Below are positions 11,573-49,924 of a stretch of 64,000 nt of DNA, one piece after another. The position numbers and the translations under genes were made by a program. Every line of letters begins with the position of its first letter. The first letter of the stretch is position 1. The notes beneath the pieces are model-generated. The model saw only the letters and a program-made list of their open reading frames with translations. It was not told the DNA's origin and made no database searches. Source of the stretch: Streptomyces sp. NBC_01288 (lineage in GTDB: Bacteria > Actinomycetota > Actinomycetes > Streptomycetales > Streptomycetaceae); assembly GCF_035982055.1 (NCBI RefSeq), contig NZ_CP108427.1, positions 1,488,001-1,552,000 of the forward strand, written 5' to 3'.

Positions 11573-11608
11573 TATGAAGGCCGCGGTTTTCCTGGGTGCG
11601 GGAGGACC
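11573..11608 (-). promoter_or_regulatory. Recurrent dyad promoter module upstream of the flavin reductase
   Basis: On the minus strand the element reads CACCCAGGAAAACCGC followed by GGCCTTCATA. It lies 92 bases before the flavin reductase start. It matches the element before the SDR at 14278 at 24 of 26 positions, and both are oriented toward their gene. Confidence 0.6.
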
Positions 11609-11616
11609 AGCCTCGG

Positions 11617-11664
11617 CTTACGTGCTTACGTGCTTACGTGCTTACGTGCTTACGTGCTTGCGTT
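11617..11664. repeat. 8-bp tandem repeat (CTTACGTG x5 plus one variant)
   Basis: Five perfect copies of CTTACGTG (11617-11656) are followed by CTTGCGTT. The array ends 10 bases beyond the stop of the minus-strand XRE gene. The region 11481-11673 shows no gene. Confidence 0.95.
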
Positions 11665-11673
11665 CGCCCGGGC

Positions 11674-12522
11674 CTACGTGTTCGCGTTCGCGCCGACCTT
11701 CTTCGGCTCCGCGGCCAGCGCCCTCAGCGTCTCGAAGGCGGCCGCGGTCGGGCCGGCCGGTTCGGCTTGGTAGACGACGAGTTGCTGATGCGGGGCGCCG
11801 TTGACGGTGAACGCGGCGAAGGCGATGTGCAGGTCGCCGACGTCCGGGTGCTTGAGGTGCTTGCCCTCCTGGGACTTGCTCTTGACGTCGTGCAGCCGCC
11901 AGATCCCCGCGAACTCCTCGCTCTCCGCGGACAGTTCCTCGACCACCTCGGCGATACGGGCCGATTCGGGATCGTGGCCGTAGGCGGCCCGGAGTTCGGC
12001 GACACAGGAGTGCGCGGCCCGGTCCCACTCCTGGTAGAACTCGCGTCCCGCCGGGTCGACGAACACGTTGCGGGCGAGGTTGTCGAACGCGTCGAACCCG
12101 CTGTGCAGCGCCGTGGCAAGGGAGTTGCCCGCGAGAATGTCGAGCGCCGGGCCGAGCACGAACGCCGGGGTGTGCTCCCAGCCGTCCATCAACTGAAGCA
12201 ACTGCGTGCTGACTTCCGCCTCGCCCCGGTCGTGCGGCCGCTGCGAGGGCGTCAGACAGAGCCGGTTGAGATGGTCGGCGGACTCCGCGTCCAGCTTCAA
12301 CGCCTGCGCCACGGCTTCCAGGACCTGCGGGGACGGACTGTTCTCGCGTCCCTGCTCCAGCCTGATGTAGTAGTCGGAGCTGACTCCGGCGAGCAGCGCG
12401 ACCTCCTCCCTGCGCAGTCCCGGCACCCGGCGTCGCCCGTACTCGGGCAGACCGACGTCCTGGGGCTTGAGGGCCTCGCGGCGGGCCCGGAGGAAATCCC
12501 CCAAAGGGGTCCCATTGCTCAT
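11674..12522 (-). CDS. XRE-family regulator with MmyB-like ligand-binding domain
   Basis: The protein has 282 residues. The N-terminal helix-turn-helix (about 8-75) contains VPGLRREEVALLAGVSSDYYIRL and the following EQGRENSPSPQVL, hallmarks of the MmyB-type branch. The C-terminal MmyB-like PAS-type domain (about 105-270) includes ILAGNSLATAL and DPAGREFYQEWDR. It is divergent from a paralogue at 12730 across 207 bases. Such proteins often sit next to SDR or other oxidoreductase genes and control them, and that is the setting here. It is a candidate for binding the recurrent dyad module seen in this window. Confidence 0.92.
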   Translation of the reverse strand: MSNGTPLGDFLRARREALKPQDVGLPEYGRRRVPGLRREEVALLAGVSSDYYIRLEQGRENSPSPQVLEAVAQALKLDAESADHLNRLCLTPSQRPHDRGEAEVSTQLLQLMDGWEHTPAFVLGPALDILAGNSLATALHSGFDAFDNLARNVFVDPAGREFYQEWDRAAHSCVAELRAAYGHDPESARIAEVVEELSAESEEFAGIWRLHDVKSKSQEGKHLKHPDVGDLHIAFAAFTVNGAPHQQLVVYQAEPAGPTAAAFETLRALAAEPKKVGANANT

Positions 12523-12565
12523 GCGGCAAGACTAGATGCTCTTCGATCGTCGAGAAGGGCCGCTC

Positions 12566-12579
12566 GTGCACAGATGCAC
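12566..12579. promoter_or_regulatory. Inverted repeat in the divergent XRE-XRE promoter region
   Basis: GTGCA-caga-TGCAC is a perfect 5-bp dyad lying 44 bases upstream of the minus-strand XRE start. It is a possible operator for that gene. Confidence 0.35.
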
Positions 12580-12666
12580 CAGGTTCCACACTCTTCACAC
12601 AGCGTGATTCACCACCCGACCGACCTTCCCCGCAGCTCCTCCGCGCCACCCCGGGAGCCGTGATCC

Positions 12667-12683
12667 TGGGTGCGACGCACCCA
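12667..12683. promoter_or_regulatory. Perfect 8-bp dyad before the plus-strand XRE gene
   Basis: TGGGTGCG-a-CGCACCCA is perfectly symmetric and ends 46 bases before the XRE start at 12730. It shares the GGGTGCG...CACC core with the modules at 35454, 47997 and 49888, so autoregulation and regulon control by one protein are plausible. Confidence 0.55.
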
Positions 12684-12729
12684 CCGTCGGCCGAACTTCT
12701 CCGGGTGTTTTCCGCCTAGCCTCGACGGT

Positions 12730-13590
12730 ATGTACAACGACGACGTGCGCCCCGACCCGGTGGAAGGGCTGGGTCAGTTCCTCCGCTCCCGCCGGGAGCG
12801 CGTCAGCCCCGCCGACGTCGGGCTGACCGGCTCCGGCCGGCGACGGGTGCCCGGGCTGCGCCGCGACGAGGTCGCCGCGCTCGCGGGGGTCAGCCCGGGC
12901 TACTACAGCAGACTTGAGCAGGGCCGTGAACTCAGCCCGTCGGTACGGGTGTTGGAGGCCATGGCCCGTGTGCTGCGGCTGGCGGAGGAGGAACGGCTCG
13001 AACTGTTCCGGCTGGCGCGACCCACGAGCCGTCGTACGAAGTCGCCGTCCCGGGTCGAGCGGGTGCGCCCGCATCTGCGGCAGCTGATCGAGAGCTGGAC
13101 CAGGACCCCGGCCTTCGTCGTCGGCCACGCCCAGGACCTGCTGGCGACCAACGCCCTGGCCGACGCCCTCTACCGGGACTTCGCCCAGCACGACAACGTG
13201 CTGCGCATGCTCTTCCTGGACCCCGCCGCGAGGACGTTCTACCGGAGCCCGGAGCGGGCGAAGAACCGTGCCGTCGCCGATCTCCAGCAGTCCGCCGCGA
13301 GCACGCCCGAGGATCCCCGCATCCTGGAACTCGTCGGCGAACTGTCCGTGCGCAGCCCCGAGTTCCGCTCGCTGTGGGCCCGCGAGTACACCCGGGTCCC
13401 GCCCTACGAGGTCAAGCGGATGCGCCATTCCGTGGTGGGAGACCTGGAGCTGCGGCACGAGGCGCTCACCATCCGCAGCGCGCCCGGTCAGCAGCTCGTC
13501 ATCCTGCAGGCGGAGCCGGACTCTCCTTCGGCGGACGGCCTGGCCCTGCTGGGTTCGCTCAGCGCGCCCGAGGTGCAGGACGCGCAGTAA
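12730..13590 (+). CDS. XRE-family regulator with MmyB-like domain, paralogue
   Basis: The protein has 286 residues from ATG 12730 (MYNDDVRPDPVEGLG). The helix-turn-helix shows VPGLRRDEVAALAGVSPGYY and then SRLEQGRELSPSVRVLEA. The C-terminal MmyB-like domain includes VGHAQDLLATNALADALY and DPAARTFYRSPERAK. It is clearly related to the divergent protein at 11674 (same VPGLRR[ED]EVA core, same LD-P domain). A 17-bp dyad (12667-12683) lies 46 bases upstream. The gene converges with a MarR gene across a repeat-filled gap of 47 bases. Confidence 0.92.
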   Translation: MYNDDVRPDPVEGLGQFLRSRRERVSPADVGLTGSGRRRVPGLRRDEVAALAGVSPGYYSRLEQGRELSPSVRVLEAMARVLRLAEEERLELFRLARPTSRRTKSPSRVERVRPHLRQLIESWTRTPAFVVGHAQDLLATNALADALYRDFAQHDNVLRMLFLDPAARTFYRSPERAKNRAVADLQQSAASTPEDPRILELVGELSVRSPEFRSLWAREYTRVPPYEVKRMRHSVVGDLELRHEALTIRSAPGQQLVILQAEPDSPSADGLALLGSLSAPEVQDAQ

Positions 13591-13607
13591 TATCCCGAGG
13601 TTACGAA

Positions 13608-13652
13608 TTACCGGGAGCTGTGTTACTGGGAATTGCGCTACCGGGAATTACG
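13608..13652. repeat. 15-bp tandem repeat x3 carrying serial in-frame stops for the MarR gene
   Basis: The units TTACCGGGAGCTGTG, TTACTGGGAATTGCG and CTACCGGGAATTACG are joined head to tail. Read on the minus strand, each ends in an in-frame stop, giving RNSR-stop, RNSQ-stop and HSSR-stop. Confidence 0.85.
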
Positions 13653-14102
13653 CTCGACCGCTCCCAGTATCCGGTCCAGGAAATCGCCGAAAAGGCGTAC
13701 CTCGTCCGAGGTGAGCGGGTCGAAGAAAAGCCGCCGTACGTTCTCCACATGGGTGGGTGCGGCGGCCTCGATCATTTCCCGGCCCTTTTCCGTGAGCCGC
13801 ACCATCGAGCCGCGGGCATCGTCCGCGCAGGGCTCGCGCGTGACGAGCCCGCGCTTCTCCATGCGGCTGATCTGATGGGACAGCCGGCTGCGCTCCCAGT
13901 CGACCTCGGCCCCCAGCTCCCGCGCGCGCAGCACGCCGCCGACGGACTCGGACAGGGGCGCGAGGAGCGCGTAGTCGGCGGCCGAGAGTCCTGAATCCCG
14001 TTGCAACTGCTGGTCCTGGGCCCGTTGCAGTTCGCGGCGCACTCTCCGGTACTTCGCCCAGACGTCGGCCTGGTCGGGAGTGAGCCATCGCGGTTCGGAC
14101 AT
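13638..14102 (-). CDS. MarR-family transcriptional regulator
   Basis: The protein has 154 residues from ATG 14102 (MSEPRWLTPDQADVW). The winged helix-turn-helix covers about 45-120, with GAEVDWERSRLSHQISRMEK as recognition region and the wing motif CADDARGSMVRLTEKGREM. It is divergent from the SDR at 14278 and a 10-bp palindrome overlapping a TTGACA box lies 22 bases upstream of its start, so it likely represses itself and possibly the SDR. The ligand is unknown. The C-terminus is encoded in the first unit of the tandem repeat that supplies its stop codon. Confidence 0.9.
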   Translation of the reverse strand: MSEPRWLTPDQADVWAKYRRVRRELQRAQDQQLQRDSGLSAADYALLAPLSESVGGVLRARELGAEVDWERSRLSHQISRMEKRGLVTREPCADDARGSMVRLTEKGREMIEAAAPTHVENVRRLFFDPLTSDEVRLFGDFLDRILGAVERNSR

Positions 14103-14123
14103 GGCCTCACGGTACCAGCTTGT

Positions 14124-14133
14124 TGACATGTCA
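14124..14133. promoter_or_regulatory. Palindrome TGACATGTCA, likely MarR operator
   Basis: A perfect 10-bp palindrome overlaps a TTGACA -35-like box (14123-14128), in the divergent MarR-SDR intergenic region. Confidence 0.5.
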
Positions 14134-14159
14134 CGGACTTGGTCGGTCAATGCCCGTTC

Positions 14160-14197
14160 CTGGGTGTGGGACTCCCAGGAAAACCGCTGCCTTCATA
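14160..14197 (+). promoter_or_regulatory. Recurrent dyad promoter module upstream of the SDR
   Basis: TTCCTGGG at 14157 pairs with CCCAGGAA at 14174 as an 8-bp inverted repeat with a 9-base spacer, followed by AAAACCGCTGCCTTCATA. It lies 80 bases before the SDR start and matches the flavin reductase module. Confidence 0.6.
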
Positions 14198-14277
14198 GCT
14201 CCGCGCCGAAGGGACAGACTCGTACTCGTCAACAAGAAATCCCCCCACAAGGGGAAGCGACGAAAGAGGTTTTCCCC

Positions 14278-15117
<840 letters not shown>

Positions 15118-15125
15118 CGCACAAC

Positions 15126-15217
15126 GGGCGCCCGGGCACGAAGAGTTCGCACGCCTGGGCCCGACGAGTCCAGGCGCCCGGGCCTGGCGAGTTCGGGCGC
15201 CCGTGCCCGGCAAGTTC
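15126..15217. repeat. 23-bp degenerate tandem repeat x4 between two SDR genes
   Basis: Units start at 15126, 15149, 15172 and 15195, and a partial fifth at 15218. The shared pattern is GGCGCCCGGGC followed by a variable CGAGTTC tail. The array starts 8 bases after the SDR stop. Each unit contains a self-complementary GGGCGCCC-like core, so the transcript could form serial hairpins. Confidence 0.85.
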
Positions 15218-15325
15218 GGACGCCCGCACCGGCCACCACCCGACACACCTGCCATACCTGCCAGCACCTTTCGCACCTGACACATAGTCAAACATCTTCC
15301 CCATCTCAGTGATTGAGGTTCCGTG

Positions 15326-16108
15326 ATGTCTGCTTCCGCCCTGCTCACCGGCACCCCCCTCGCCGGCCGTGTCGCCGTCGTCTCCGGCGCGTCCAGCGGC
15401 ATGGGCGCCGTCACCGCCGAACGGCTCGCCGAACTCGGCGCCACCGTGGTCGTGTTGGCCCGCCGCAAGGAGCGACTGGAAGGCGTGGTCAAGAACATCG
15501 AGGCCGCCGGCGGCACCGCGTTCGCCCTGGCCGTCGACGTCACGGACCGCGCCGCCGTCCAGGCCGCCGCCGATCAGGCCGCCGAGCGCTTCGGCAAGGC
15601 CGACCTGGTGTTCAACAACGCCGGTGTCCAACTCATCTCCGGTATCGCGGAGTTGAAGGTCGACGACTGGCAGCGCCAGATCGACCTCAACATTAGCGGG
15701 CTGATGAACGTGATCGCCGCGTTCCTCCCCCACCTGACCGAGTCCGCCGCCGCGGGCAGGCCGGCCGACCTGATCAACACCTCGTCGATCGCGGCCACCC
15801 GCATCCTGACGAAGTTCTCGATCTACTCCGGCACCAAGGCGTACATCAGCCACCTCACCCGGCTGCTCCGGGTGGAGCTCGGTCCGAAGATGGTCCGCGT
15901 GGCCACCATCGAGCCCGGCATGGTCGACACCGAACTGCCCGATCACGTCACGGACGCCGACGCGTCCAAGCTGATGGCCGACCTGATCAGCGACATCGAC
16001 GTCCTCCAGAGCGCCGACATCGCCGAGACCGTCGCCTTCATGGCCGCCGTACCGCGCCACGTCAACCTCACCGAGATCACCATCCTGCCCACCGCACAGG
16101 CGATCTGA
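15326..16108 (+). CDS. Short-chain dehydrogenase/reductase (YdfG-like)
   Basis: The protein has 260 residues. ATG 15326 is preferred to the adjacent GTG 15323. It shows SGASSGMG (cofactor loop), NNAGVQ, and the catalytic region NTSSIAATRILTKFS with YSGTKAYIS, so Ser, Tyr and Lys are all present. ARRKERLE after the second strand suggests NADPH preference. The C-terminal VPRHVNLTEITILPT is typical of YdfG-like NADP-dependent alcohol or 3-hydroxy acid dehydrogenases. A strong hairpin terminator follows 21 bases after the stop. Confidence 0.92.
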   Translation: MSASALLTGTPLAGRVAVVSGASSGMGAVTAERLAELGATVVVLARRKERLEGVVKNIEAAGGTAFALAVDVTDRAAVQAAADQAAERFGKADLVFNNAGVQLISGIAELKVDDWQRQIDLNISGLMNVIAAFLPHLTESAAAGRPADLINTSSIAATRILTKFSIYSGTKAYISHLTRLLRVELGPKMVRVATIEPGMVDTELPDHVTDADASKLMADLISDIDVLQSADIAETVAFMAAVPRHVNLTEITILPTAQAI

Positions 16109-16128
16109 GATCCCCCCTGATCCCCTCA

Positions 16129-16169
16129 GGGTGGGGGAGGAACAGCCAGGCGCTGCTCCTCCCCCACCC
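16129..16169 (+). terminator. Hairpin terminator after the second SDR gene
   Basis: Arms 16129-16146 (GGGTGGGGGAGGAACAGC) and 16152-16169 pair at 17 of 18 positions around a 5-base loop. There is no U tract, as is common in Streptomyces. Confidence 0.8.
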
Positions 16170-16180
16170 AGGCGGCGTTG

Positions 16181-16222
16181 GTTGACACGACAACATCAAT
16201 CGTGTTTTGTTGATACGTCAAC
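16181..16222. promoter_or_regulatory. Two copies of a quasi-palindromic operator GTTGAYACGWCAAC
   Basis: GTTGACACGACAAC (16181-16194) and GTTGATACGTCAAC (16209-16222) are 28 bases apart, start to start, and lie just before the gene at 16258. The second copy is a near-perfect palindrome. The form resembles MarR/OhrR-type operators with TTGA...TCAA arms; no cognate regulator is adjacent. Confidence 0.6.
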
Positions 16223-16257
16223 GAGGACGCGCAATCCCAGGCAGACCGGAGGCCGAC

Positions 16258-16809
16258 ATGAACATCACGGTGATCGGACGAGGACACGTCGGCGGCGGCC
16301 TGGCCCGCCTGTGGGAGAAGGCCGGGCACCAGGTCAGGACGCTGGGCCGGGACGGCGGTGACGCCTCGGACGCGGATGTGGTGGTCGTGGCCGTCCCCGG
16401 CAACCAGATCGCCGAGGCGCTGCGGAGCGTGACCGGCCTGAACGGCCAGGTCACCATCGACGCGACCAACCTCTACTCGGAGCGCGACCCCGCCTTCCCT
16501 TCCCTCGCGCACCAGGTGAAGTCGATCGTCGGCGGCCCGACCGCGAAGTCCTTCAACACGGTCTTCGCCTCCGCCTACGACCAGATCGGCACCCAGCGAG
16601 TCACCCCGAGCAACCTCTACGCCGCCGAACCGGCCGCCAAGGACATCACCGCACAGCTCATCACCGACGCGGGCTTCGACCCGCTCTACGTCGGTGACCT
16701 CGACCCGGGCGCCCGCCTCCTAGAGGACAGCTCGGGCCTGACCCGCGCACTGGCCGGGCAGATCGGCGGTCCGTTCTTCTACCGGTACGGGCGGCCCGGG
16801 GAGCTGTAA
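16258..16809 (+). CDS. NAD(P)-binding, NADPH-dependent F420 reductase-like protein
   Basis: The protein has 183 residues from ATG 16258 (MNITVIGRGHVGGGL), with GACCGGAGG as ribosome site. The N-terminal Rossmann motif GRGHVGGGLARLWEKAGH and ADVVVVAVPGNQI are those of the F420-dependent NADP oxidoreductase/YrdC-like small dehydrogenase family. The C-terminal part (GPTAKSFNTVFA, then DPGARLLEDSSGL) fits the same family. It probably transfers hydride between NADP and an unknown acceptor. Two operator-like repeats sit in its promoter. Confidence 0.85.
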   Translation: MNITVIGRGHVGGGLARLWEKAGHQVRTLGRDGGDASDADVVVVAVPGNQIAEALRSVTGLNGQVTIDATNLYSERDPAFPSLAHQVKSIVGGPTAKSFNTVFASAYDQIGTQRVTPSNLYAAEPAAKDITAQLITDAGFDPLYVGDLDPGARLLEDSSGLTRALAGQIGGPFFYRYGRPGEL

Positions 16810-16909
16810 GTGCGGTGCGGGCGGGGGTAGTTCAGGGCCCCGGGCGCACCGGTCCGCTCCCCCGCACCGATCCGAACCGCGAGTCACACCACCCGCCGCC
16901 CACGTCGCC

Positions 16910-16940
16910 TTGACCTTGTCGCAACGTCAGGGTTTCTACT
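16910..16940 (+). promoter_or_regulatory. MerR-type promoter with 19-bp spacer
   Basis: TTGACC (16910-16915) and TCTACT (16935-16940) are separated by 19 bases that hold the partial dyad CCTTGTCGCAACGTCAGG. An over-long spacer with a dyad is the usual layout of promoters activated by MerR proteins, here upstream of the MerR gene itself. Confidence 0.7.
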
Positions 16941-16946
16941 GAAGCC

Positions 16947-17714
16947 ATGCGAATCGGCGAGATCGCCGCCCTCATCGGGGTCACCCCGCGGGCCGTGCGG
17001 CACTACCACCAGCTCGGGCTGCTGCCCGAACCCGTACGGCGGAGCAACGGGTACCGGGAGTACGGCATCCGGGACGCCGTCCTGCTCGCCCGGATCCGCC
17101 GGCTGACCGAGCTGGGGCTCGGGCTCGACGAGGTGCGTGACGTCCTCGCGGACGACGAGGGCCGCGAACTGGTGGAAGTCCTCCAGGAGTTGGACGAGGA
17201 CCTCGGCCGGCAGGAAGCGGTCATCCGGGAGCGGCGCGAGCGACTCGCCGCACTGCTGGCCGAGGCGCGGGGCGGGCGGCTGACCGCCGAAGCGCCGCTG
17301 TCGCCGCAGCTCACGGCGCTGCTGGCGGGCCTCGGCGAACTGCCGGACTCCCCCATGGCCGTGAAGGACCGGGAGATCCTTGCCCTCCTCGACACCGTGG
17401 CCCCCGAGGCGGACCGGGTCCGGCTGATGGAGACGCTGCGGGGAATGGCCGAGCACGCGGGCGAGATGTACGGCCTGCTGGACGCCCTCGCCGACAAGGA
17501 GCCGGACGACCCCGAGGTGACCCGTGCCGCCGCCGCGCTGGCGGCCCTGCTGCCCGACGACCTGGCCACCCGGTTCTCCGACCAGCCCGACGGCGGTCTC
17601 ACCGACGCCATCTTCGCGGACCTGGCACCGGCCCAGTCGGCGGCGGTGCACCGTGCGATCGAACTCGCACAGCACCGACAGTTCGCGAACGACCGACAGG
17701 AAGACCCGTCATGA
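16947..17714 (+). CDS. MerR-family transcriptional regulator
   Basis: The protein has 255 residues. The N-terminal winged helix-turn-helix is MRIGEIAALIGVTPRAVRHY followed by HQLGLLPEPVRRSNGYREY. A coiled-coil dimerisation helix follows (about 70-120, ELVEVLQELDEDLGRQEAVI). The C-terminal 130 residues are an all-helical domain without the Cys pairs of metal-sensing MerR members, so an organic ligand or TipA-like role is more likely. Its stop overlaps the next start (ATGA), so the membrane protein downstream is co-expressed. Autoregulation is suggested by the long-spacer promoter. Confidence 0.9.
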   Translation: MRIGEIAALIGVTPRAVRHYHQLGLLPEPVRRSNGYREYGIRDAVLLARIRRLTELGLGLDEVRDVLADDEGRELVEVLQELDEDLGRQEAVIRERRERLAALLAEARGGRLTAEAPLSPQLTALLAGLGELPDSPMAVKDREILALLDTVAPEADRVRLMETLRGMAEHAGEMYGLLDALADKEPDDPEVTRAAAALAALLPDDLATRFSDQPDGGLTDAIFADLAPAQSAAVHRAIELAQHRQFANDRQEDPS

Positions 17715-19416: not shown

Positions 19417-19445
19417 GTCGCACTCCCTCATGCAAGGAACCCCCG

Positions 19446-19463
19446 GTTGACCACTTGACCAGT
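19446..19463 (-). promoter_or_regulatory. GntR operator candidate near its own start
   Basis: On the minus strand this reads ACTGGTCAAGTGGTCAAC, 15 of 18 identical to the site at 19646. It has TGGTC half-sites like those of DasR-responsive elements. Confidence 0.6.
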
Positions 19464-19645
19464 TGCCCAATAGTCGCCCGTAATCGCCCTGTTGACCAGG
19501 GCAGTGTAACCACCGGCGAGCCGTGATCATCCCGGCCCCGCCCGGTTAGCACGCCAAGTCCCCTCACAACAGAGGGGGTTGACGCACCCATTGGTCTATG
19601 CCACCTTCATCCCCACATCGAGAGGTGAGCTGTCCAGTGGGCTTC

Positions 19646-19663: not shown

Positions 19664-19685
19664 TCATGTCCTCCAGAGGTGAACC

Positions 19686-35446: not shown

Positions 35447-35453
35447 GCAGAGT

Positions 35454-35490
35454 GGGTGCGGGACACCTGGGTCAACGGCGGCCTGGTTGC
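35454..35490 (+). promoter_or_regulatory. Recurrent dyad promoter module upstream of the Atu4866 fusion gene
   Basis: GGGTGCGGGACACCTGGG is followed by TCAACGGCGGCCTGGTTGC, ending 71 bases before the start. It aligns closely with the module before the amidohydrolase at 47883. Confidence 0.6.
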
Positions 35491-35561
35491 GCTCCTCGGG
35501 CGCGACCAGGCTGATCGTGCGACATCACCTGGAGACCCGAGACCCACCCGAGGAGCGGACG

Positions 35562-36419
35562 ATGAGCGTCACCCACACGGACACCGACACGGAAGCGGGC
35601 ACGGAAACCGGCACGGGCGCCGTGGCCTGGAACAGCGAGACCCTGGACGAGATCGTCTCGAACGACGCGGGCCGTCCCGTCCTCTTCGCCAACGCCCGGG
35701 TCCTGACCATGGACTCCCTGATCGGAACCCTGCGCGGCGCCGACGTCCTGCTCGTCGGCGCCCTGCTGGTGGGCGTCGGCCCGGGCATCATCACGGCGGC
35801 GGGCGACGACAACGCCATCGTCGTCGACTGCACCGGCATGACGGTGGTCCCGGCGGTGGTGGACGCCGTCGCGCTCGTCGGCGGACGGGGCCAACGCGCG
35901 GATTACGTAGAGACGTTGACACCGGGGAACACGGGCGACCTGCTCGTCGTAGCGGACTCGCCTGCCCCCGATGTGGCGAGCGCGCAGGCCGCGTTGCTCA
36001 CCCGCCCGGAGGAGGTCCGCGCCCTGGTGGCGGCCGGCAAGCCGGCCCTCTGGTCCGGCACGGACGCCCCCGACCGGCCTACCGCCCCCGAGGCGGGCAT
36101 CCCGGCCACCCAAGACCTCACCGGCAACCCGCGCATCGACGTCTGGATCGACGAACACGACTTCCTGCACCAGGAGTTGACCCCAGACGGCCGTTACGAC
36201 GAGACCCGCGGCAGCCGCCCGCACGCCCACGAGGGCCGCTACTGGATCGACGGCGACCGGATCGGCTGTCTGGACGACCTCGGGTTCTGGGCGTTCGGCG
36301 AGTTCCGGGGCGAGGAACTGCATCACGCGGGGTATGCGAAGCGGCTCGGGGCGCGGGCGCAGTGCTTGTTCAGGTCGGTCCCCGGGCGTAGCAGTCGTTC
36401 AAGCCAGCCCCGGGCGTAG
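35562..36419 (+). CDS. Atu4866-domain protein with a barrel-less amidohydrolase-like N-terminus
   Basis: The protein has 285 residues from ATG 35562 with AGGAG upstream. Residues 35-160 follow the composite beta-sandwich of metal-dependent amidohydrolases (LFANARVLTMDSLIGTLRG; VVDCTGMTVVPAVVDAVAL; LTPGNTGDLLVVAD). They jump from the N-terminal to the C-terminal half and omit the TIM barrel and the HxH metal motif. Residues about 185-265 are an Atu4866 domain (HQELTPDGRYDETRG, then GRYWIDGDRIGCLDDLGFWA), like the separate small protein at 49611. Catalysis is unlikely; a binding role is more plausible. The last 15 residues come from a tandem repeat. Confidence 0.75.
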   Translation: MSVTHTDTDTEAGTETGTGAVAWNSETLDEIVSNDAGRPVLFANARVLTMDSLIGTLRGADVLLVGALLVGVGPGIITAAGDDNAIVVDCTGMTVVPAVVDAVALVGGRGQRADYVETLTPGNTGDLLVVADSPAPDVASAQAALLTRPEEVRALVAAGKPALWSGTDAPDRPTAPEAGIPATQDLTGNPRIDVWIDEHDFLHQELTPDGRYDETRGSRPHAHEGRYWIDGDRIGCLDDLGFWAFGEFRGEELHHAGYAKRLGARAQCLFRSVPGRSSRSSQPRA

Positions 36420-41841: not shown

Positions 41842-41885
41842 CGCGGTGACTCCTCGATGCGGAAGGTGTCGAAGCCGTACGTCAT
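41838..41885 (-). CDS. Coupled mini-ORF 1 (15 residues) between two permease genes
   Basis: MTYGFDTFRIEESPR starts at ATG 41885 overlapping the MalF-type permease stop (ATGA) and ends overlapping mini-ORF 2. Its end repeats the permease C-terminus GFD...IEESPR. The DNA around its start, CGAGGAGTCGCCGCGATGAC, recurs with few changes at both later junctions. Confidence 0.5.
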   Translation of the reverse strand: MTYGFDTFRIEESPR

Positions 41886-44238: not shown

Positions 44239-44260
44239 GGAACCTCCGGCGATTTCGCTT

Positions 44261-44279
44261 ACCACTTATTGACCAGTGG
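44261..44279. promoter_or_regulatory. GntR operator candidate between binding-protein and GntR genes
   Basis: ACCACTTATTGACCAGTGG contains CCACT and AGTGG arms and the TTGACCA half-site also seen at 19446, with three extra central bases. Confidence 0.5.
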
Positions 44280-44372
44280 GCACATGTTGGGGCACCATTT
44301 GGGCACTGTCAAGCAAGCATTTCGGAAGTAACCCGCAAGAAAAATGACCACCGGTATGGAAAGTTGGTAGGA

Positions 44373-45203
44373 ATGGTCAGCGGTGAGAGCCGTTGGGAGA
44401 AGCGGGAACGCATCCGCACCCACCTCCTCGACCTGGTCGAGGAGACCGGGCCCGGCCGCCCCCTCCCGGGCGAACGGCAGCTGTGCGAGGAACTCGGGGT
44501 CTCCCGCCCCACCCTGCGCGCGGTGGTCGACGACTTCGTCCGTGACGGTCTGCTGGTGCGGGAGCACGGGCGGGGCGTCTTCGTCGCCCGCGCCAAGGTC
44601 GCCCAGCACCTCGGCGGGTCCGTCCCCGGGCAGGCGCAGGGCCTGGGCGTCGGCGGTGTGGACGGCACCTGGGCCAGCCGCACCCTGGACTTCAAGACCG
44701 TCGCCGCGGGACCCCGGATCGGCCGCCGGCTGGGCATCGCGCCCAGCGAGCAGATCCTGCGGATCCTCCGGCTGCGGACGGTGGACGGCGACCCGATGTG
44801 CGTGGAGACCCTGCACGTACCGCACGCGCTGGTCCCCGGACTGACCGCCCGCGACCTGGAGACCGACTCCTTCTACCGGCTGCTCGGGCAGCGATACGAG
44901 ATCCTGCTGACCGACGCCGCGCAGAGCATCGAACCGACCGTGGTCGACGAGTGGGAGGCCGAACTCCTCGGCGTCTCCGTGCACACGCCCGCCCTGCTCT
45001 TCGAACGGGCGGCGCGCGACGCGGCAGGCCGGGTAGTCGAGTTCACCCGCTCCGTCTACCGAGGCGACCGCTACCGCATCTTCACCAGGCTGTCGCTGGC
45101 GGCCCGGCCCGACGGCGGACGCGTCGTCGACGGCTCCTGGTCGGCGGCCACCACCGTCCCCGGCGCCGACACCCTGGTCTTCGACCCCTACTGGAGCAAC
45201 TAG
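44373..45203 (+). CDS. GntR-family (HutC-type) regulator of the second sugar operon
   Basis: The protein has 276 residues from ATG 44373. The winged helix-turn-helix shows LPGERQLCEELGVSRPTLRA and VREHGRGVFVARAKV; the UTRA domain shows ILRILRLRTVDGDPMCVETL and FTRSVYRGDRYRIFTRL. It is a close paralogue of the regulator at 18577, sharing SRPTLRA(A/V)VD and YRGDRYRI. It probably represses the divergent importer operon, with a sugar phosphate as inducer. The GH18 gene lies downstream on the same strand. Confidence 0.9.
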   Translation: MVSGESRWEKRERIRTHLLDLVEETGPGRPLPGERQLCEELGVSRPTLRAVVDDFVRDGLLVREHGRGVFVARAKVAQHLGGSVPGQAQGLGVGGVDGTWASRTLDFKTVAAGPRIGRRLGIAPSEQILRILRLRTVDGDPMCVETLHVPHALVPGLTARDLETDSFYRLLGQRYEILLTDAAQSIEPTVVDEWEAELLGVSVHTPALLFERAARDAAGRVVEFTRSVYRGDRYRIFTRLSLAARPDGGRVVDGSWSAATTVPGADTLVFDPYWSN

Positions 45204-45310
45204 CCACCCTCACCCACCAGTTCACCGCGCCGGCCCGTCGGCCGACGCGGCGGTCCCGCACGCCCTCCGCACCCGCAAGACCCGCTCCTCCCCACCAGAA
45301 AGGACCGCTC

Positions 45311-46384
45311 ATGTTCCGTCACGCACTCACCGTGACCGGCGTCGTGGCCTCCACGGTCACCACACTGCTCGCCTGTACGGCCTCGGTCCCGGCCGGCGCG
45401 ACCCCCTCCGCCACCTCGGGCGTCCAGCTCCAGACCTGGCTCTACCCCGGGTCGACCGGCGACTCCACCTGCACCGCCAAGAGCGAGTACGCCGACAACA
45501 GGGTGAAGAACGGCGCCCTCAACCCCGAGTACTGGTCGGTCCAGAGCAACGGCTCGGTGAAACTGGAGACCACCGCCGACGGCAGCTGCAACACCTACAG
45601 CGCGGCCAACGTCGCCGACCTCAAGGCACACTCGACGTACCAGTACCCGACCCTCTCAGGTATGACCACCGCCGACGTCCACGCCCTGGTCAGCACCAGC
45701 AGCACCCGTACGGCGGCCGTCACCAAGGTCACCTCCCTCGTCAGCGACGCCGGGCTCAGCGGCGTCGACGTCGACCTTGAGGACTACTGGTCCTGGAGCA
45801 CCGCCGACTTCACCAACTACAAGACGTTCCTCAAGCAGTTGGCCACCGCCCTGCACGCCAAGGGCAAGCGCCTCCAGGTCGACGCACCGGCCATGACCGA
45901 GGACGCCTCGTTCTACGACTACGCCGCCGTGGCCGCCACCGGCGCAGACGACGTGGTGATCATGGCGTACGACGAGGAGTTCGACACCGCGTCCGGCGCC
46001 CGCTGCCTGCCCATCAGCCCCTACGACTGGCTGAAGAAGGTCACCCAGTACGCGCAGAGCAAGATCCCCGACCCCAACCGCCTGATCATCGGCGTGCCCT
46101 CCTACGGCTACAGCGCGCCCGACCCGTGCGACCTCAACTCCGTTACGGGCAACATCCAGTTCAGCGACATGAAGAAGAGCCCCGGCTTCTCCTCCAACCC
46201 GGCGACCATAGAGAGCCGCCGCGACGCCTCCTCCGGCGAGATCCGCTGGGTCTCCGGCGGCGTCCTCTACGACTACGTCGACAGCGTCGCCATGGACCGC
46301 AAGCTGGCCGTCCTCAAGGGCCTCGGCGTCACCAAGGTCTCGGTGTGGTCGCTGGGCGGCGGGAACCCCTGGTTCTCCAACTGA
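45311..46384 (+). CDS. Secreted GH18 (chitinase-like) enzyme
   Basis: The protein has 357 residues from ATG 45311 (AGAAAGGACC upstream). The signal TTLLACTASVPAGATP has a Cys but no strict lipobox, so Sec release or lipidation is uncertain. The barrel contains the GH18 catalytic motif in GLSGVDVDLEDYW with Glu near 157, then VVIMAYDEEF and KVSVWSLGGGNPWF. There is no chitin-binding domain. It probably releases short oligomers for the adjacent importer. It follows the GntR gene by 107 bases with no clear terminator between them. Confidence 0.87.
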   Translation: MFRHALTVTGVVASTVTTLLACTASVPAGATPSATSGVQLQTWLYPGSTGDSTCTAKSEYADNRVKNGALNPEYWSVQSNGSVKLETTADGSCNTYSAANVADLKAHSTYQYPTLSGMTTADVHALVSTSSTRTAAVTKVTSLVSDAGLSGVDVDLEDYWSWSTADFTNYKTFLKQLATALHAKGKRLQVDAPAMTEDASFYDYAAVAATGADDVVIMAYDEEFDTASGARCLPISPYDWLKKVTQYAQSKIPDPNRLIIGVPSYGYSAPDPCDLNSVTGNIQFSDMKKSPGFSSNPATIESRRDASSGEIRWVSGGVLYDYVDSVAMDRKLAVLKGLGVTKVSVWSLGGGNPWFSN

Positions 46385-46415
46385 CCCGTCTGATCCAACT
46401 GACCTGTCTGATCCG
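46380..46415. repeat. 18-bp duplication of the GH18 stop region
   Basis: ACTGACCCGTCTGATCCA is followed by ACTGACCTGTCTGATCCG, with two mismatches. Both copies carry TGA in the same frame, giving a second in-frame stop. Confidence 0.85.
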
Positions 46416-46425
46416 CCTACGGCAC

Positions 46426-46467
46426 TGATGCGGCGGGCACCCTCGGGTTCGGGTGCCCGCCGCATCA
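46426..46467. terminator. Bidirectional hairpin terminator between GH18 and amidohydrolase genes
   Basis: TGATGCGGCGGGCACCC (46426-46442) pairs perfectly over 17 bases with GGGTGCCCGCCGCATCA (46451-46467) around an 8-base loop. It lies between two convergent genes. Confidence 0.92.
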
Positions 46468-46491
46468 ACTCCGCCTACCTTTCAACACCAC

Positions 46492-47883
46492 TTACTTCGC
46501 AGGCGTGTTGAGCACATGGTCGCGAGAGGCGGCGACCTCGGCCCGCAACTCGGGAAGGTTCACGTCGAGCACCCGCCCGTCCCACTTACGGGGCTGCCCG
46601 TTGACGAACACAGCGGTGATGTTGCGGGCGTCGGAGCCCAACACCAGTGTCCCGATCGGGTCGTTGAGCGGCATGTTGTTGAGGTCCTCGGCCTGGACGA
46701 CCAACAGGTCCACCTTCTTGCCGACGGTGAGGGAGCCGGTGACATCGCCGAGCCCGTTGGTCCGGGCTCCCTGGAGGGTGGCGAAGTCGAGGACGTCGTA
46801 CGTGGTGATGCGCGACAGCTCGCCGCCGGTGCCGTAGGCCGCGTTGACCGCACGCATCCGCTGGATCGCGAGGAGGGCCCGCATCTGTGTGAACAGGTCG
46901 CTGGCGAGGGCGACTTCGACGTCGATGCTCAGTCCGGGGCGGATGCCGACGGCGAGTGCCTCGTCCACCGCGGGGATCGCCGTCTCCAGGCCGATCTGCG
47001 CGTCCGAGGTGGGCGCGAGGGCCACCGTCGTACCGGACTCCCCCATCGCCTTCCATGCCTCGACGGTCAGCCCCGTGGAGTGGATCAGGGTGACGTCGGG
47101 ACCGAGGATGCCGTGGTTCGCCCAGGACAGCACCGCCTCCGATCCGGAGGCACCGAAGACCGCGTCGACGCTGACACCGATGCCCAAGTCGGCTGCGGTA
47201 CAGGCGAGTTCGGGGCCGTAGGCGAGGGCGGGTCCGGTGATCTCGTCAGTGGCGAGGGTCGCCAGGCGCAGCGTGAGGAGCTGGTCGTCGCTGCTGAAGT
47301 ACCGGTCCTTGAGGCGGTTCAGGTCGGCAGGCCACTGGTGGTCCCAGTCGCCGAAGTGCGCGCCCATGGAGGCGTGGACGCCGCGGATGCCGGTGTCGCG
47401 GAGTGCCTCGATCGCCGCGTCGGAGTGCTCGCGGGTACGGGAGTTGTGCGAGAAGTCGAGCATCGTGGTGATGCCGCTGTCGAGCGCGGTGAGCGCCGCG
47501 AGTCTGGTGCCGATGTACATGTCCTCGGGCCGGTAGACGGTGGCGTAACCCGCGAGGGTGGCCATCACATAGCCGCCGAGGTCGTCGACGTCGGGCATGA
47601 TCCGGCGCAACTGGGCTTCCCAGGCGTGCCGGTGGGTGTCGACGAGACCGGGCGCGAGGATGGTGCCGGAGGCGTCGACGACGACCGCGCCCTCCGCGGA
47701 CAGCCCCGGCCCGATCGCGGCGACCGAGTCGCCCTCGATGAGCAAGTCGCCCTGCACAGTGCCCAGTTCCGGGTCCATCGTGACGATGGTCGCGCCGGTG
47801 AACAGGATGCGCCGGTTCGGGTCGGCGGACTGGCGGCACAGTTGGTCGAGAAGGCCGGCGCTGGTGGTGTCGTTGGCGTTCAT
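46492..47883 (-). CDS. Amidohydrolase (cytosine/chlorohydrolase-like)
   Basis: The protein has 463 residues from ATG 47883. It begins with the composite domain (ILFTGATIVTMDPELGTVQG), followed by the metal motif LAPGLVDTHRHAW with HxH. LIHSTGLTVEAW, LAPTSDAQIG and SIDVEVALASDLF carry the later metal and acid positions, although some expected His and Asp are replaced (for example DVEVA where SDxxA is common). It resembles atrazine chlorohydrolase/SsnA-type enzymes acting on amino-heterocycles. The composite domain is closely similar to the barrel-less protein at 35562, and both share a promoter module. Confidence 0.88.
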   Translation of the reverse strand: MNANDTTSAGLLDQLCRQSADPNRRILFTGATIVTMDPELGTVQGDLLIEGDSVAAIGPGLSAEGAVVVDASGTILAPGLVDTHRHAWEAQLRRIMPDVDDLGGYVMATLAGYATVYRPEDMYIGTRLAALTALDSGITTMLDFSHNSRTREHSDAAIEALRDTGIRGVHASMGAHFGDWDHQWPADLNRLKDRYFSSDDQLLTLRLATLATDEITGPALAYGPELACTAADLGIGVSVDAVFGASGSEAVLSWANHGILGPDVTLIHSTGLTVEAWKAMGESGTTVALAPTSDAQIGLETAIPAVDEALAVGIRPGLSIDVEVALASDLFTQMRALLAIQRMRAVNAAYGTGGELSRITTYDVLDFATLQGARTNGLGDVTGSLTVGKKVDLLVVQAEDLNNMPLNDPIGTLVLGSDARNITAVFVNGQPRKWDGRVLDVNLPELRAEVAASRDHVLNTPAK

Positions 47884-47910
47884 GAGAGCCCCTTTTCGGA
47901 TGACTTCGGT

Positions 47911-47940
47911 GACGTCGGGCGACGTCGGGCGACGTCGGGT
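47911..47940. repeat. 10-bp tandem repeat x3 (GACGTCGGGC) before the amidohydrolase
   Basis: Two perfect copies and one with a final T lie 28 bases upstream of the start codon, between the promoter module and the gene. Confidence 0.9.
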
Positions 47941-47996
47941 GGCGTGCGGCATGCGGCGAGTGGCGAGTGGCCCAAGATTCGATCCGCGCTCGTGCG

Positions 47997-48033
47997 GCAA
48001 CCAGGAGGCCGTTTCCCTAGGTGCGCCGCACCC
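47997..48033 (-). promoter_or_regulatory. Recurrent dyad promoter module upstream of the amidohydrolase
   Basis: On the minus strand it reads GGGTGCGGCGCACCTAGG and then GAAACGGCCTCCTGGTTGC, ending 113 bases before the start. GGTGCGGCGCACC is a near-perfect dyad. Confidence 0.65.
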
Positions 48034-48050
48034 AGGACGGCGTCCGGCAA

Positions 48051-49598
48051 CTACGGCCGCCCCAGCCGGATCTCCTCCACGTCGAGCACTTCCTGGACCG
48101 CCCGCAGGACGATGTCGTCGATACGGCCGCTGTCGCGCAGGTCGGTGAGGGTGTCGCGTTTGACCTGGAGCAGGGCGAGTTGGAGGCGCCGTACGCTCTC
48201 GCGGCGGTGCGCGGAGCCGGGTGCGGAGGCCGTGCGGTCCTCGATGTCCTGGACCATGCGCAGGGTGTCCTCCTCGGCGACCCCGAACCGCTCGGCCAGC
48301 GCCGGCATGGCGTCCAGCGCGGCGCTGCTCAACCGGCAGCGGGCCAGGGTGAGTTCGGCGCTCTTGTCCTCGTCGGCCGGGAAACGGGCCCGGCGGACCA
48401 TGGCCGGCAGGGTGGGCCCGAGGAAGGTCAGGGTGACGACGATGACGACCGCGGTGATGAACACGACGGCGTCCCGCTGCCCGACGATCCGGCCCTCGGC
48501 AGTGGTCGCGGGCACGGTCAGCGCTGCGGCCAGCGAGATGGCGCCGCGCATCCCGGCCCAGGCCAGCGGCAACCGCTGCGGGGCGGTGATCCGACGGTCC
48601 CGCTGCTGGGGACGCCGGTCCAGGAGCCGCACGAGATAGGGCACCGAGTAGAACCAGAGCAGCCGCGTCCCGAGCACCGCGATACTCACCGCGAGGGCGG
48701 CGACCGTCGCCTGCACCAGGGACACGGACGTCAACGCCCGGACGGCGGCGGGCAGTTGGCTGCCGACGAGGACGAACAGGGCGCCGTTGAGCAGATAACT
48801 CGCCACCTCCCAGAAGGCGACGGCCTGGATACGGGCCTCGGACCCGATGACGCGTGGCCCGAACCAGGCGGACACCAGCCCGCAGACGACGACCGCCAAC
48901 ACACCGGACACATGCAGGAGTTCGGCCGGCAGATAGGCGAGGAACGGCGTCGCGACGCTCAGCACGCTGTGCAGCAGCGGTTCGGGCAGCCGGCGCCGGA
49001 CCGGGATGAGGAGCAGGGCGACCGCCGCGCCGATCAGGATGCCGCCGCCGTACGACGCGACGAAGGCGAGTGCCGTGCCGGACCAGGAGAAAGGGTGCTC
49101 GTCGGTGACGACGTCGATGGTCACCGCGAGCAGGACCAGCGCGGTCCCGTCGTTGAGGAGGCTCTCGGTGCGCAGCACGGTCAGGATGCGGCGCGGCATG
49201 GCCTTGGCGACCGCGGCGACGGCCGCCGCGTCCGTCGGGGCGAGCACGGCGCCGAGGACGAACGCGATCGGCCAGCCGTAGCCCAGCGCGTGGGCCACGA
49301 CGGCGACCGCGACGGCGGTGGCGAGGACCAGCCCGGTGGACTGGAGCGCGATGCTACGGAAATTGTTGCGGATCTCCCGCACCGAGGAGGTCAGCGCCTC
49401 CCAGTACAGCAGCGCGGGCAGGAAGAGGAACAGGACGACGTCCGGAGACAGCGCGAACGACGAGAAGGACGGAGTCAGTCCCACGAGACATCCCGCCGCG
49501 AGCAGCAGCAGGGGTTCGCTCAGGCCCGTTCGCCGCGACAGCCAGCCCATGAGCAGGACGGCGGCCGCGACGACGACGATCAGTTCGAGGCTGTCCAT
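48051..49598 (-). CDS. Na+/H+ antiporter, CPA1 family
   Basis: The protein has 515 residues with about 12 helices in residues 1-400 and a cytoplasmic helical tail of about 110 residues. Characteristic CPA1 segments are LFLFLPALLYWEALTSS, VLAPTDAAAVAAV with the ion-binding Asp, and RTESLLNDGTALVLL with the conserved ESLLND. It exchanges protons for sodium or potassium at the cytoplasmic membrane. It lies just downstream of a small Atu4866 gene with 12 bases between them. Confidence 0.92.
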   Translation of the reverse strand: MDSLELIVVVAAAVLLMGWLSRRTGLSEPLLLLAAGCLVGLTPSFSSFALSPDVVLFLFLPALLYWEALTSSVREIRNNFRSIALQSTGLVLATAVAVAVVAHALGYGWPIAFVLGAVLAPTDAAAVAAVAKAMPRRILTVLRTESLLNDGTALVLLAVTIDVVTDEHPFSWSGTALAFVASYGGGILIGAAVALLLIPVRRRLPEPLLHSVLSVATPFLAYLPAELLHVSGVLAVVVCGLVSAWFGPRVIGSEARIQAVAFWEVASYLLNGALFVLVGSQLPAAVRALTSVSLVQATVAALAVSIAVLGTRLLWFYSVPYLVRLLDRRPQQRDRRITAPQRLPLAWAGMRGAISLAAALTVPATTAEGRIVGQRDAVVFITAVVIVVTLTFLGPTLPAMVRRARFPADEDKSAELTLARCRLSSAALDAMPALAERFGVAEEDTLRMVQDIEDRTASAPGSAHRRESVRRLQLALLQVKRDTLTDLRDSGRIDDIVLRAVQEVLDVEEIRLGRP

Positions 49599-49610
49599 GG
49601 CCGTACCGGG

Positions 49611-49859
49611 TTACGCGCGGTACAGGACGAGGTGCTCGTGGAAGAGCACGCCGTCGCGGACGTCACCGGTGGCGGTGAAGCCGGTGTCGTCGACGTAGTC
49701 GATGTGGTCGCCGGTGACGGTGTAGCTGCCGGTGTAGGCACTTGGACGGTTCCCGCGGGCCTCGTCGTACCGGCCGTTCGGGAGGAGTTCCTGCCGGATG
49801 TGTCCGTCGGCGGTGACCCACATGCCGACGAAGGGGTGCGGTGCCGCGTTCGTGTTCAT
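49611..49859 (-). CDS. Atu4866-domain small protein
   Basis: The protein has 82 residues from ATG 49859, with GGTGGAG upstream. It is one Atu4866 domain, seen as FVGMWVTADGHIRQELLPNG, RYDEARGNRPSAYTGSY and DYVDDTGFTATGD, a small beta-barrel fold of unknown activity. The same domain forms the C-terminus of the fusion at 35562. The antiporter gene follows by 12 bases. A copy of the recurrent promoter module lies 28 bases upstream. Confidence 0.85.
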   Translation of the reverse strand: MNTNAAPHPFVGMWVTADGHIRQELLPNGRYDEARGNRPSAYTGSYTVTGDHIDYVDDTGFTATGDVRDGVLFHEHLVLYRA

Positions 49860-49887
49860 GGCTCCACCGTCGCGTTCCCGCGCGGCG

Positions 49888-49924
49888 GTAACCAGACCAC
49901 ACCTCTCCTGGGTGTCCGGCACCC
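49888..49924 (-). promoter_or_regulatory. Recurrent dyad promoter module upstream of the Atu4866 gene
   Basis: On the minus strand it reads GGGTGCCGGACACCCAGG and then AGAGGTGTGGTCTGGTTAC. The gene starts 28 bases further on, closer than in the other copies. Confidence 0.6.

What the first reader, a model, noticed from the sequence alone, without database searches (positions are those of the whole stretch)
11573..49924. A recurrent dyad promoter module links scattered oxidoreductase and hydrolase genes
Five promoters carry a dyad near GGGTGC-N4/5-CACC(C/T)(A/G)GG, followed after about 10 bases by CCTGGTTGC or CCTTCATA. They are 11573-11608 (flavin reductase), 14160-14197 (SDR), 35454-35490 (Atu4866 fusion), 47997-48033 (amidohydrolase) and 49888-49924 (Atu4866). 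All are oriented toward their gene. A perfect dyad of the same core (12667-12683) precedes the MmyB-type XRE gene. The parts match too well to be chance and suggest one regulon, with the XRE pair as the best candidate regulators.
Basis: partly seen in the sequence, partly recalled or inferred. Interest (0 to 1): 0.7.

Follow-up and report, generated by a model that had tools for sequence, protein, structure and literature searches.

The report
Shared activator-type promoter of MmyB-like regulators
Five scattered genes (for oxidoreductases, an amidohydrolase and Atu4866-type proteins) in a Streptomyces-like genome share one rigid upstream layout, a paired DNA site at a fixed distance from two promoter-like boxes; the same layout recurs beside one class of MmyB-like regulator genes in other actinomycetes, so that regulator likely binds the site and is predicted to switch these genes on.

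Summary
A 66-position model built without the window finds six places in the 10.56-Mb genome at E <= 0.01: these five, plus a weaker one divergent from another MmyB/MltR-type XRE gene. Flanks of the five are unrelated, so this is not simply duplicated DNA. Of 80 loci chosen only for an XRE1 homologue, 71 contain the dyad; spacer 5 gives 137 dyads, other spacers 2-11 except one with 32. Of 43 further model hits in other genomes (43 of 45 eligible), 23 lie within 150 bp of, and divergent from, such an XRE gene. First genes behind the sites are mostly SDRs, Atu4866 proteins and amidohydrolases. None of 136 target sites has T at the first -10 position. I infer class I-like activation by XRE1-type proteins. 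Binding, start sites and sign of regulation are untested, and two genomes have strong sites but no close XRE1.

The parts
11591..11611 (-). predicted operator dyad upstream of the flavin-reductase-like gene (left arm degenerate: GCTGGTCC-TCCCG-CACCCAGG)
   Evidence: model R1 42.6 bits over 11548-11602
11574..11580 (-). predicted -35 element CCTTCAT of the flavin-reductase promoter
   Evidence: offset 31 from the dyad
11550..11555 (-). -10-like hexamer GAGACT of the flavin-reductase promoter
   Evidence: offset 56 from the dyad
10962..11480 (-). flavin-reductase-like gene, reading frame apparently broken in this window
   Evidence: no Pfam hit in the first frame; relative L152:9090-9656 is PF01613; three frames printed
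11674..12522 (-). XRE1: HTH + MLTR_LBD (PF17765) regulator, the likely activator; canonical TAGTCT at 12529-12534, 6 nt before ATG (leaderless-type start)
   Evidence: hexamer read
12665..12685 (+). intergenic dyad between XRE1 and XRE2 (8-5-8, no CCTGG/CCTTC box at offset 31 on either side)
12717..12722 (+). canonical -10-like TAGCCT of XRE2, 7 nt before ATG
   Evidence: read; conserved in relatives
12730..13590 (+). XRE2: second HTH + MLTR_LBD regulator, likely itself regulated through the dyad centred 55 bp upstream
14159..14179 (+). predicted operator dyad of the SDR1 promoter
   Evidence: R1 49.7 bits over 14158-14222
14190..14196 (+). predicted -35 element CCTTCAT of the SDR1 promoter
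14215..14220 (+). -10-like hexamer CAGACT of the SDR1 promoter
14278..15117 (+). SDR1, short-chain dehydrogenase (PF00106)
35451..35471 (+). predicted operator dyad of the Atu4866-fusion promoter
   Evidence: R1 49.7 bits over 35452-35513
35482..35488 (+). predicted -35 element CCTGGTT
35507..35512 (+). -10-like hexamer CAGGCT
35562..36419 (+). amidohydrolase-like N-terminal piece fused to an Atu4866 domain (PF11512)
   Evidence: the amidohydrolase-like part is my reading of the sequence; Pfam hits only Atu4866
48016..48036 (-). predicted operator dyad of the amidohydrolase promoter
   Evidence: R1 39.3 bits over 47980-48037
47999..48005 (-). predicted -35 element CCTGGTT
47975..47980 (-). -10-like hexamer GAATCT
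46492..47883 (-). amidohydrolase (PF01979)
49907..49927 (-). predicted operator dyad of the Atu4866 promoter
   Evidence: R1 28.4 bits over 49864-49926
49890..49896 (-). predicted -35 element TCTGGTT
49866..49871 (-). -10-like hexamer GACGGT, 6 nt before the ATG (leaderless-type start)
49611..49859 (-). Atu4866-family protein (PF11512)

Best explanation
Five upstream regions in this window share one rigid layout (8-5-8 dyad, 10 bp, a CCTGGTT-, TCTGGTT- or CCTTCAT-type box, 18 bp, a (C/G)AnnnT box; the boxes are a predicted -35 and -10), and the dyad is likely the operator of XRE1, an MmyB/MltR-type XRE regulator that is predicted to bind it as a dimer and to activate transcription from just upstream of the -35. 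The dyad centre would lie about 58 bp before the transcription start, a class I-like activator position. The target -10 has C, G or rarely A where the strong consensus has T, so these promoters would be weak without the activator. The XRE1/XRE2 intergenic dyad, centred 55 bp before XRE2, likely gives autoregulation of the pair. The ligand domain (MLTR_LBD) would sense a small compound, perhaps fatty-acid-like, and thereby induce a small set of genes: SDR, flavin reductase, amidohydrolase, Atu4866 proteins. Shown: the layout, its rarity in the genome, its link to this regulator class, the genes behind it. Inferred: binding, activation, start sites, ligand, physiological role.
For: Genome scan: six hits in 10.56 Mb, five being these promoters and one (22.7 bits) next to another PF17765 gene. 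Geometry: CCTGG at offset 31 on 30 and CCTTC on 41 of 286 dyad sides; nAnnnT at offset 56 in 71 of 77 composite sites, other offsets averaging 0.6. Loci picked only by XRE1 homology: 71 of 80 have the dyad; 137 dyads at spacer 5, the other spacers from 1 to 11 giving 2-11 except spacer 9 with 32. Of 143 dyads (window included) 4 lie inside called genes although 78% of the sequence is called coding. Dyad within 300 bp upstream: SDR1 35/38, XRE2 class 35/46, Atu4866 17/25, Atu4866 fusion 16/24; other genes 14/843, neighbouring SDR2 0/32. 23 of 43 new model hits are divergent from and within 150 bp of an XRE gene of this kind, 34 of 43 within 4.6 kb; with the own-genome hit, 23 of the 24 adjacent XRE proteins match MLTR_LBD and 24 of 24 HTH_31. 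In nine genomes I chose, 5 of 5 XRE1-like proteins at >=52% identity have a dyad upstream, 0 of 15 at <=47% do. XRE1 at >=71% is in 11 of 150 genomes, all 11 with the composite. Activation: 0 of 136 target -10s start with T, while 183 of 234 XRE genes have a TAnnnT 5-8 nt before a start codon, against a mean of 7.2 in shuffles. MmyB itself is described as switching on its genes (PMC3406030, passages).
Against: No binding or expression data. G108 and G062 have strong sites (best hits 2.7e-14 and 1.2e-11) but their closest XRE1-like proteins are only 45% and 43% identical and have no dyad near the gene start; in G057 the XRE in the cluster is 47% and has none either. Of the 44 new sites tested, 9 had no such XRE in the fetched stretch, and 4 of the 44 lie inside called genes. 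New sites may be orthologues of training sites, so they are not fully independent of them. The amidohydrolase and flavin-reductase classes are weaker (13 of 36 and 1 of 9 with a dyad); some of those genes may be downstream in operons or have degenerate arms. In this genome most other PF17765 paralogues that could be tested have no dyad of this class.
Confidence: 0.72

Rival explanations
1. The XRE binds the same dyad but represses: it would hold RNA polymerase back from a site just upstream of the -35, and ligand would release it.
For: Many XRE proteins are repressors (general knowledge); the XRE2 dyad sits close to its own predicted promoter, as autorepressors do.
Against: The dyad does not overlap the predicted -35 or -10 and has fixed phase to them (offsets 31 and 56); target -10s lack the first T in 136 of 136, which suits a promoter that needs help; MmyB is described as switching on its genes.
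Confidence: 0.14
2. The boxes are the promoter of an alternative sigma factor, and the dyad is incidental or belongs to another protein.
For: The -35-like (CCTGGTT or CCTTCAT) and -10-like ((C/G)AnnnT) boxes deviate from the usual TTGACN/TANNNT (consensus recalled) in the same way at many sites.
Against: The dyad is conserved along with the boxes and also occurs without them before XRE2; the link is to one XRE class, mostly at a near-constant 35-40 bp from its gene when the hit reads away from it.
Confidence: 0.05
3. XRE2 or another regulator, such as the neighbouring MarR protein (13638-14102, MarR_2), controls the five promoters instead of XRE1.
For: XRE2 shares the recognition segment YY-RLEQGRE-PS and its own promoter holds the dyad at a conserved distance.
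Against: G020, G049 and G067 have the sites and XRE1 but no XRE2 match at E <= 1e-90. The MarR gene is found in only 8 of 36 named loci with SDR1 at >=70%, while SDR1 has the dyad in 35 of 38 cases.
Confidence: 0.09

Closest known systems
MmyB/MltR family (MltR of Chloroflexus aurantiacus, PDB 3pxp; MmyB of the methylenomycin cluster), PMC3406030
   Same: HTH plus MLTR_LBD architecture; profile of 14 relatives matches 3pxp (E 3.2e-6, modest: an unrelated lectin scores 1.4e-5 in the same list); neighbouring SDR genes and divergent gene layout as described for S. coelicolor paralogues (section 12).
   Different: The passages and section I read name MmyB 'B-boxes' but give no sequence for them; here an operator, a promoter geometry, several targets per regulator and the Atu4866/amidohydrolase partners are proposed.
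Large-scale prediction of palindromic XRE motifs (PMC12565409)
   Same: Dyad operator next to an XRE gene; same idea of comparing upstream sequences.
   Different: GGGTGC and TGGGTG do not occur in its main text (passages only, its Table S1 was not seen), so overlap with one of its motif clusters cannot be excluded.
Class I activator-dependent promoters (recalled, no call)
   Same: Activator site centred around -60, not overlapping the -35, in fixed phase, with weak core boxes.
   Different: Here inferred from sequence alone; the proposed activator is an XRE protein with a PAS-like ligand domain.

Membership tests
MmyB/MltR-type XRE regulator (XRE1, XRE2) | N-terminal XRE-type HTH | tested here: met
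   PF13560 and PF01381 over cut-off in both
MmyB/MltR-type XRE regulator (XRE1, XRE2) | C-terminal MLTR_LBD ligand domain (PF17765) | tested here: met
   174.6 and 172.4 bits, cut-off 26.3; profile match to 3pxp
MmyB/MltR-type XRE regulator (XRE1, XRE2) | gene divergent from an SDR/MDR or antibiotic-related target | tested here: inconclusive
   in the window XRE1 is divergent from XRE2, and SDR1 starts about 1.8 kb from the XRE1 start; in L159 and beside 24 of 44 new sites the XRE is divergent from the site's direction
MmyB/MltR-type XRE regulator (XRE1, XRE2) | binds an amphiphilic, fatty-acid-like ligand | not testable with these tools
   ligand described only for 3pxp in PMC3406030 (passages)
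Activator-dependent (class I-like) promoter | operator upstream of and not overlapping the -35, in fixed phase | tested here: met
   offsets 31 and 56 fixed, if the boxes are the -35 and -10
Activator-dependent (class I-like) promoter | transcription requires the bound activator | not testable with these tools
   needs expression data
One regulon | motif at several genes, rare elsewhere in the genome, not carried by duplicated flanks | tested here: met
   five of six genome hits; 300-bp flanks share no blastn hit
One regulon | common regulator binds all sites | not testable with these tools
   needs binding assay

The most novel reading that the evidence does not exclude
This is the first operator-and-promoter code for a class of MmyB/MltR regulators: an 8-5-8 CCTGGGTG dyad locked 31 bp from the -35 and 56 bp from a T-less -10, activating dispersed detoxification-type genes from a class I-like position across several families of Actinomycetota. 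Other MmyB paralogues use the same geometry with altered half-sites, so the operator could be read from the recognition helix and would reveal the targets of many orphan MmyB-like regulators.
Probability: 0.45. Interest if true: 0.72.

Novelty: new variant of a known kind. Interest (0 to 1): 0.6.

Why it matters
MmyB/MltR-type regulators are numerous in actinomycetes (31 PF17765 matches in this genome alone) and are linked to antibiotic and redox genes (PMC3406030). My searches of an open-access library showed no operator for this class, though only listings and a few passages were seen. A defined operator with a rigid promoter geometry would let targets of such orphan regulators be listed by computer and tested by one binding assay. 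It also offers a clean natural case of promoters whose -10 lacks its first T in target genes while the regulators' own promoters keep it. The uncharacterised Atu4866 family gains a regulatory context as a recurrent partner of SDRs and an amidohydrolase.

Tried and rejected
Duplicated DNA as the cause: 62-bp flanks of the five promoters are 21-39% identical between pairs and 300-bp flanks give no blastn hit at 1e-3. The promoters themselves are 47-69% alike, most within the pairs flavin reductase/SDR1 (69%) and Atu4866 fusion/amidohydrolase (65%), so an old promoter duplication within those pairs is not excluded.

Third half-site instead of a -35: considered because CCTGGTTGC resembles CCTGGGTGC; dropped when a -10-like hexamer was found exactly 18 bp downstream in 71 of 77 sites, and because CCTTCAT does not resemble a half-site.

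One dyad for all PF17765 paralogues: not supported. In this genome 22 paralogues could be given a start (XRE2 not among them): XRE1 and one other score 15 or more, two more 6-9, the other 18 are not distinct from shuffles (p 0.07 or more). A matrix-free palindrome count over 81 upstream regions gives 40 regions at spacer 5 against 34-38 at spacers 0, 3, 7, 9 and 11, so no clear excess; CCAGG-type dyads near -43 are a lead only.

MarR as a constant partner: my first query for it was out of frame and says nothing; repeated with the right frame it is in 8 of 36 SDR1 loci.

MmyB's own B-boxes on plasmid SCP1: record not held. Phage relatives of XRE1: 3 records, best 35.1% identity. PDB by sequence: XRE1 alone none at 1e-3, amidohydrolase none at 1e-20, Atu4866 matches 2jmb, an uncharacterised protein.
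Full report
What was checked. The window is G000:C1:1488001-1552000 of a 10.56-Mb single-contig genome. Its XRE1 is 98% identical to that of Streptomyces prunicolor, so I take it to be a Streptomyces (inference).

Anatomy. Written from the first dyad base, the five sites are: dyad 0-20 (8 bp, 5 bp spacer, 8 bp), 10 bp, a heptamer at 31-37 (CCTTCAT for flavin reductase and SDR1; CCTGGTT for the Atu4866 fusion and the amidohydrolase; TCTGGTT for Atu4866), 18 bp, and a hexamer at 56-61 (GAGACT, CAGACT, CAGGCT, GAATCT, GACGGT). I read the heptamer as the -35 and the hexamer as the -10. The start would then be near offset 68 and the dyad centre about 58 bp upstream of it (inference). For Atu4866 the hexamer ends 6 nt before the ATG, so that transcript would be leaderless; XRE1 and XRE2 have TAGTCT and TAGCCT 6 and 7 nt before their ATGs.

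Chance and duplication. In the own genome the composite pattern with up to 3 mismatches occurs five times, all in the window, and the reversed control never. Across the 150 genomes of that one search have a match; many look like coding sequence, and the control matches in some genomes too, so the pattern alone is not proof elsewhere. I gathered composite sites from other genomes, thinned them to 58, left the window out, and built model R1. Searched with the tool's stricter filters, the own genome gives six places at E <= 0.01: the five promoters and G000:C1:6890089-6890152 at 22.7 bits. The sixth is divergent from, and about 70 bp from, another PF17765 gene and reads toward an SDR gene. R1 contains orthologues of the window promoters, so finding the five is expected; the sixth is the independent part. 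The 62-bp flanks of the five are 21-39% identical between pairs, the promoters 47-69%, and 300-bp flanks give no blastn hit.

Link to the regulator class. XRE1 and XRE2 are both HTH + MLTR_LBD. These were chosen by protein, not by motif, and many are related species. With a half-site matrix from 53 sites of other loci (some from the same species), 71 of 80 contain a dyad scoring 13 or more; 137 dyads have spacer 5, against 2-11 for the other spacers from 1 to 11 except spacer 9 with 32, probably 4-bp slippage of GGTG. Of 143 dyads including the window, 4 lie inside called genes, with 78% of the sequence called coding; for spacers 3, 4, 6 and 7 it is 15 of 18. Dyad within 300 bp upstream, by identity class: SDR1 35 of 38, XRE2 35 of 46, Atu4866 17 of 25, Atu4866 fusion 16 of 24, XRE1 36 of 83, amidohydrolase 13 of 36, flavin reductase 1 of 9, all other genes 14 of 843, SDR2 0 of 32, ADH 0 of 4, antiporter 0 of 2. 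Gene starts were called by a simple script, so these fractions are approximate. Of 25 loci outside Streptomyces (my list), 14 have the full composite.

New hits. In 150 genomes of the genus (the own one included), 116 have at least one R1 match at E <= 0.01 (many are weak and probably noise). I took the listed hits of 26 bits or more outside the loci already fetched, 43 of 45 (left out: G059:C6 and G120:C376), plus the own sixth hit. Of the 43, 23 are within 150 bp of and divergent from an XRE gene found with a profile of XRE1/XRE2 relatives, 34 are within 4.6 kb, 9 have none in the stretch fetched; with the own hit 24 and 35 of 44. Of the 24 adjacent XRE proteins 24 match HTH_31 and 23 match MLTR_LBD; one match covered only 94 profile positions. 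Four of the nine sites without an XRE are inside called genes. With about 30 such genes per 10 Mb the chance of falling within 150 bp is about 0.1% per site (assumption used). Some of these hits may be orthologues of training sites.

Which XRE. XRE1 at 71% or more occurs in 11 of 150 genomes; all 11 have the composite at up to 3 mismatches, 10 of 11 at up to 2 against 12 of 139 other genomes (Fisher 5.6e-9, not corrected for kinship). XRE2 at 78% or more occurs in 8, all of which also have XRE1; G020, G049 and G067 have XRE1 and the sites without an XRE2 match at E <= 1e-90. In nine genomes that I chose because they have sites but no XRE1 of that grade, 20 XRE1-like proteins were found in eight: the 5 at 52-54% identity all have a dyad 50-87 bp upstream of the matched start, the 15 at 41-47% have none there. 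Against this, G108 and G062 have strong sites and no XRE1-like protein above 45%; G050 (82% complete) has none at this cut. The neighbouring MarR gene is present in only 8 of 36 SDR1 loci. The 14 aligned XRE1/XRE2 relatives, all from loci with a dyad, keep YY-RLEQGRE-PS, and the same Glu is invariant in the 24 adjacent XREs; it is in 36 of 37 distinct segments with an upstream dyad and 20 of 44 without.

Genes behind the sites. Of 88 sites, 76 had a gene called within 330 bp. About half come from pattern-found loci, the rest from the new hits. They match SDR (27), Atu4866 (26), amidohydrolase (15), MFS (3), SnoaL_4 (3), SnoaL_2 (1), VanZ (1) and GNAT (1) families. The set looks like redox or detoxification chemistry; substrates are unknown.

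Mechanism. nAnnnT occurs at offset 56 in 71 of 77 composite sites of the named set plus window and in 44 of 48 of the genus set; other offsets average below 1. In 136 distinct composites, selected for CCTGG or CCTTC and for A and T in the hexamer and not thinned for kinship, the first hexamer base is C 76, G 57, A 3, T 0. By contrast 183 of 234 XRE genes (166 of 216 distinct regions) have TAnnnT 5-8 nt before a start codon, against a mean of 7.2 in shuffled regions; the same search with C or G as first base gives 19 each. An operator in fixed phase just upstream of a weak core promoter is what an activator needs. MmyB is described as switching on its genes (PMC3406030: passages and section 12). 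Hence activation by XRE1 is my first choice, repression the main rival.

Novelty. PMC3406030 describes the divergent layout of MmyB-type genes with SDRs and names B-boxes without a sequence in what I read. PMC12565409 (passages only, supplement not seen) predicts XRE motifs; its main text does not contain GGGTGC or TGGGTG. The passages of PMC10717218 show no operator. Of the searches, one search found 120 papers by partial terms, of which 20 were listed and none opened from that list; some searches listed 1-5 papers each; two searches found none. The 2009 MmyB paper (O'Rourke et al.) did not appear in these listings and was not seen; its B-boxes could turn out to be related.

Changes after checking. 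The MarR argument was replaced by a correct test, the adjacent XREs were confirmed with Pfam, the TAnnnT comparison was given a shuffle control, and the odds of the rivals and the novel case were lowered slightly.

Noticed in passing
window 10962-11480 (-): The flavin-reductase-like gene behind the 11573 promoter appears frameshifted after about 50 residues in this assembly; several relatives are 188 aa and one checked matches PF01613. Broken copy or sequencing error.
   Followed up: partly
window 35562-36419 (+): Apparent fusion of an amidohydrolase-like beta-domain remnant, without an evident catalytic barrel (my reading), to an Atu4866 domain; found near the intact amidohydrolase gene in several genomes.
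   Followed up: partly
window 14120-14235: TTGTTGAC ... GTCAACAA inverted repeat around the MarR/SDR1 intergenic promoter; a GTCAACAGGAAATCCC-like stretch is conserved in many SDR1 leaders. Possible MarR site, giving SDR1 a second input.
   Followed up: no
XRE upstream regions of L083, L070, L220, L114 and L215: Other MmyB-type XRE genes have CCAGG-n3-N5-n3-CCTGG dyads centred 43-64 bp before the start, hinting at sister operators of the same geometry with altered half-sites.
   Followed up: partly
G108:C1:7679128-7680322 (L079) and G062:C38:96502-96561 (L081): Strong composite sites in genomes without a close XRE1 homologue; the regulator there is unknown.
   Followed up: no
window 11616-11659: Short tandem repeat of an 8-base unit (acgtgctt) between XRE1 and the flavin-reductase promoter.
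   Followed up: no
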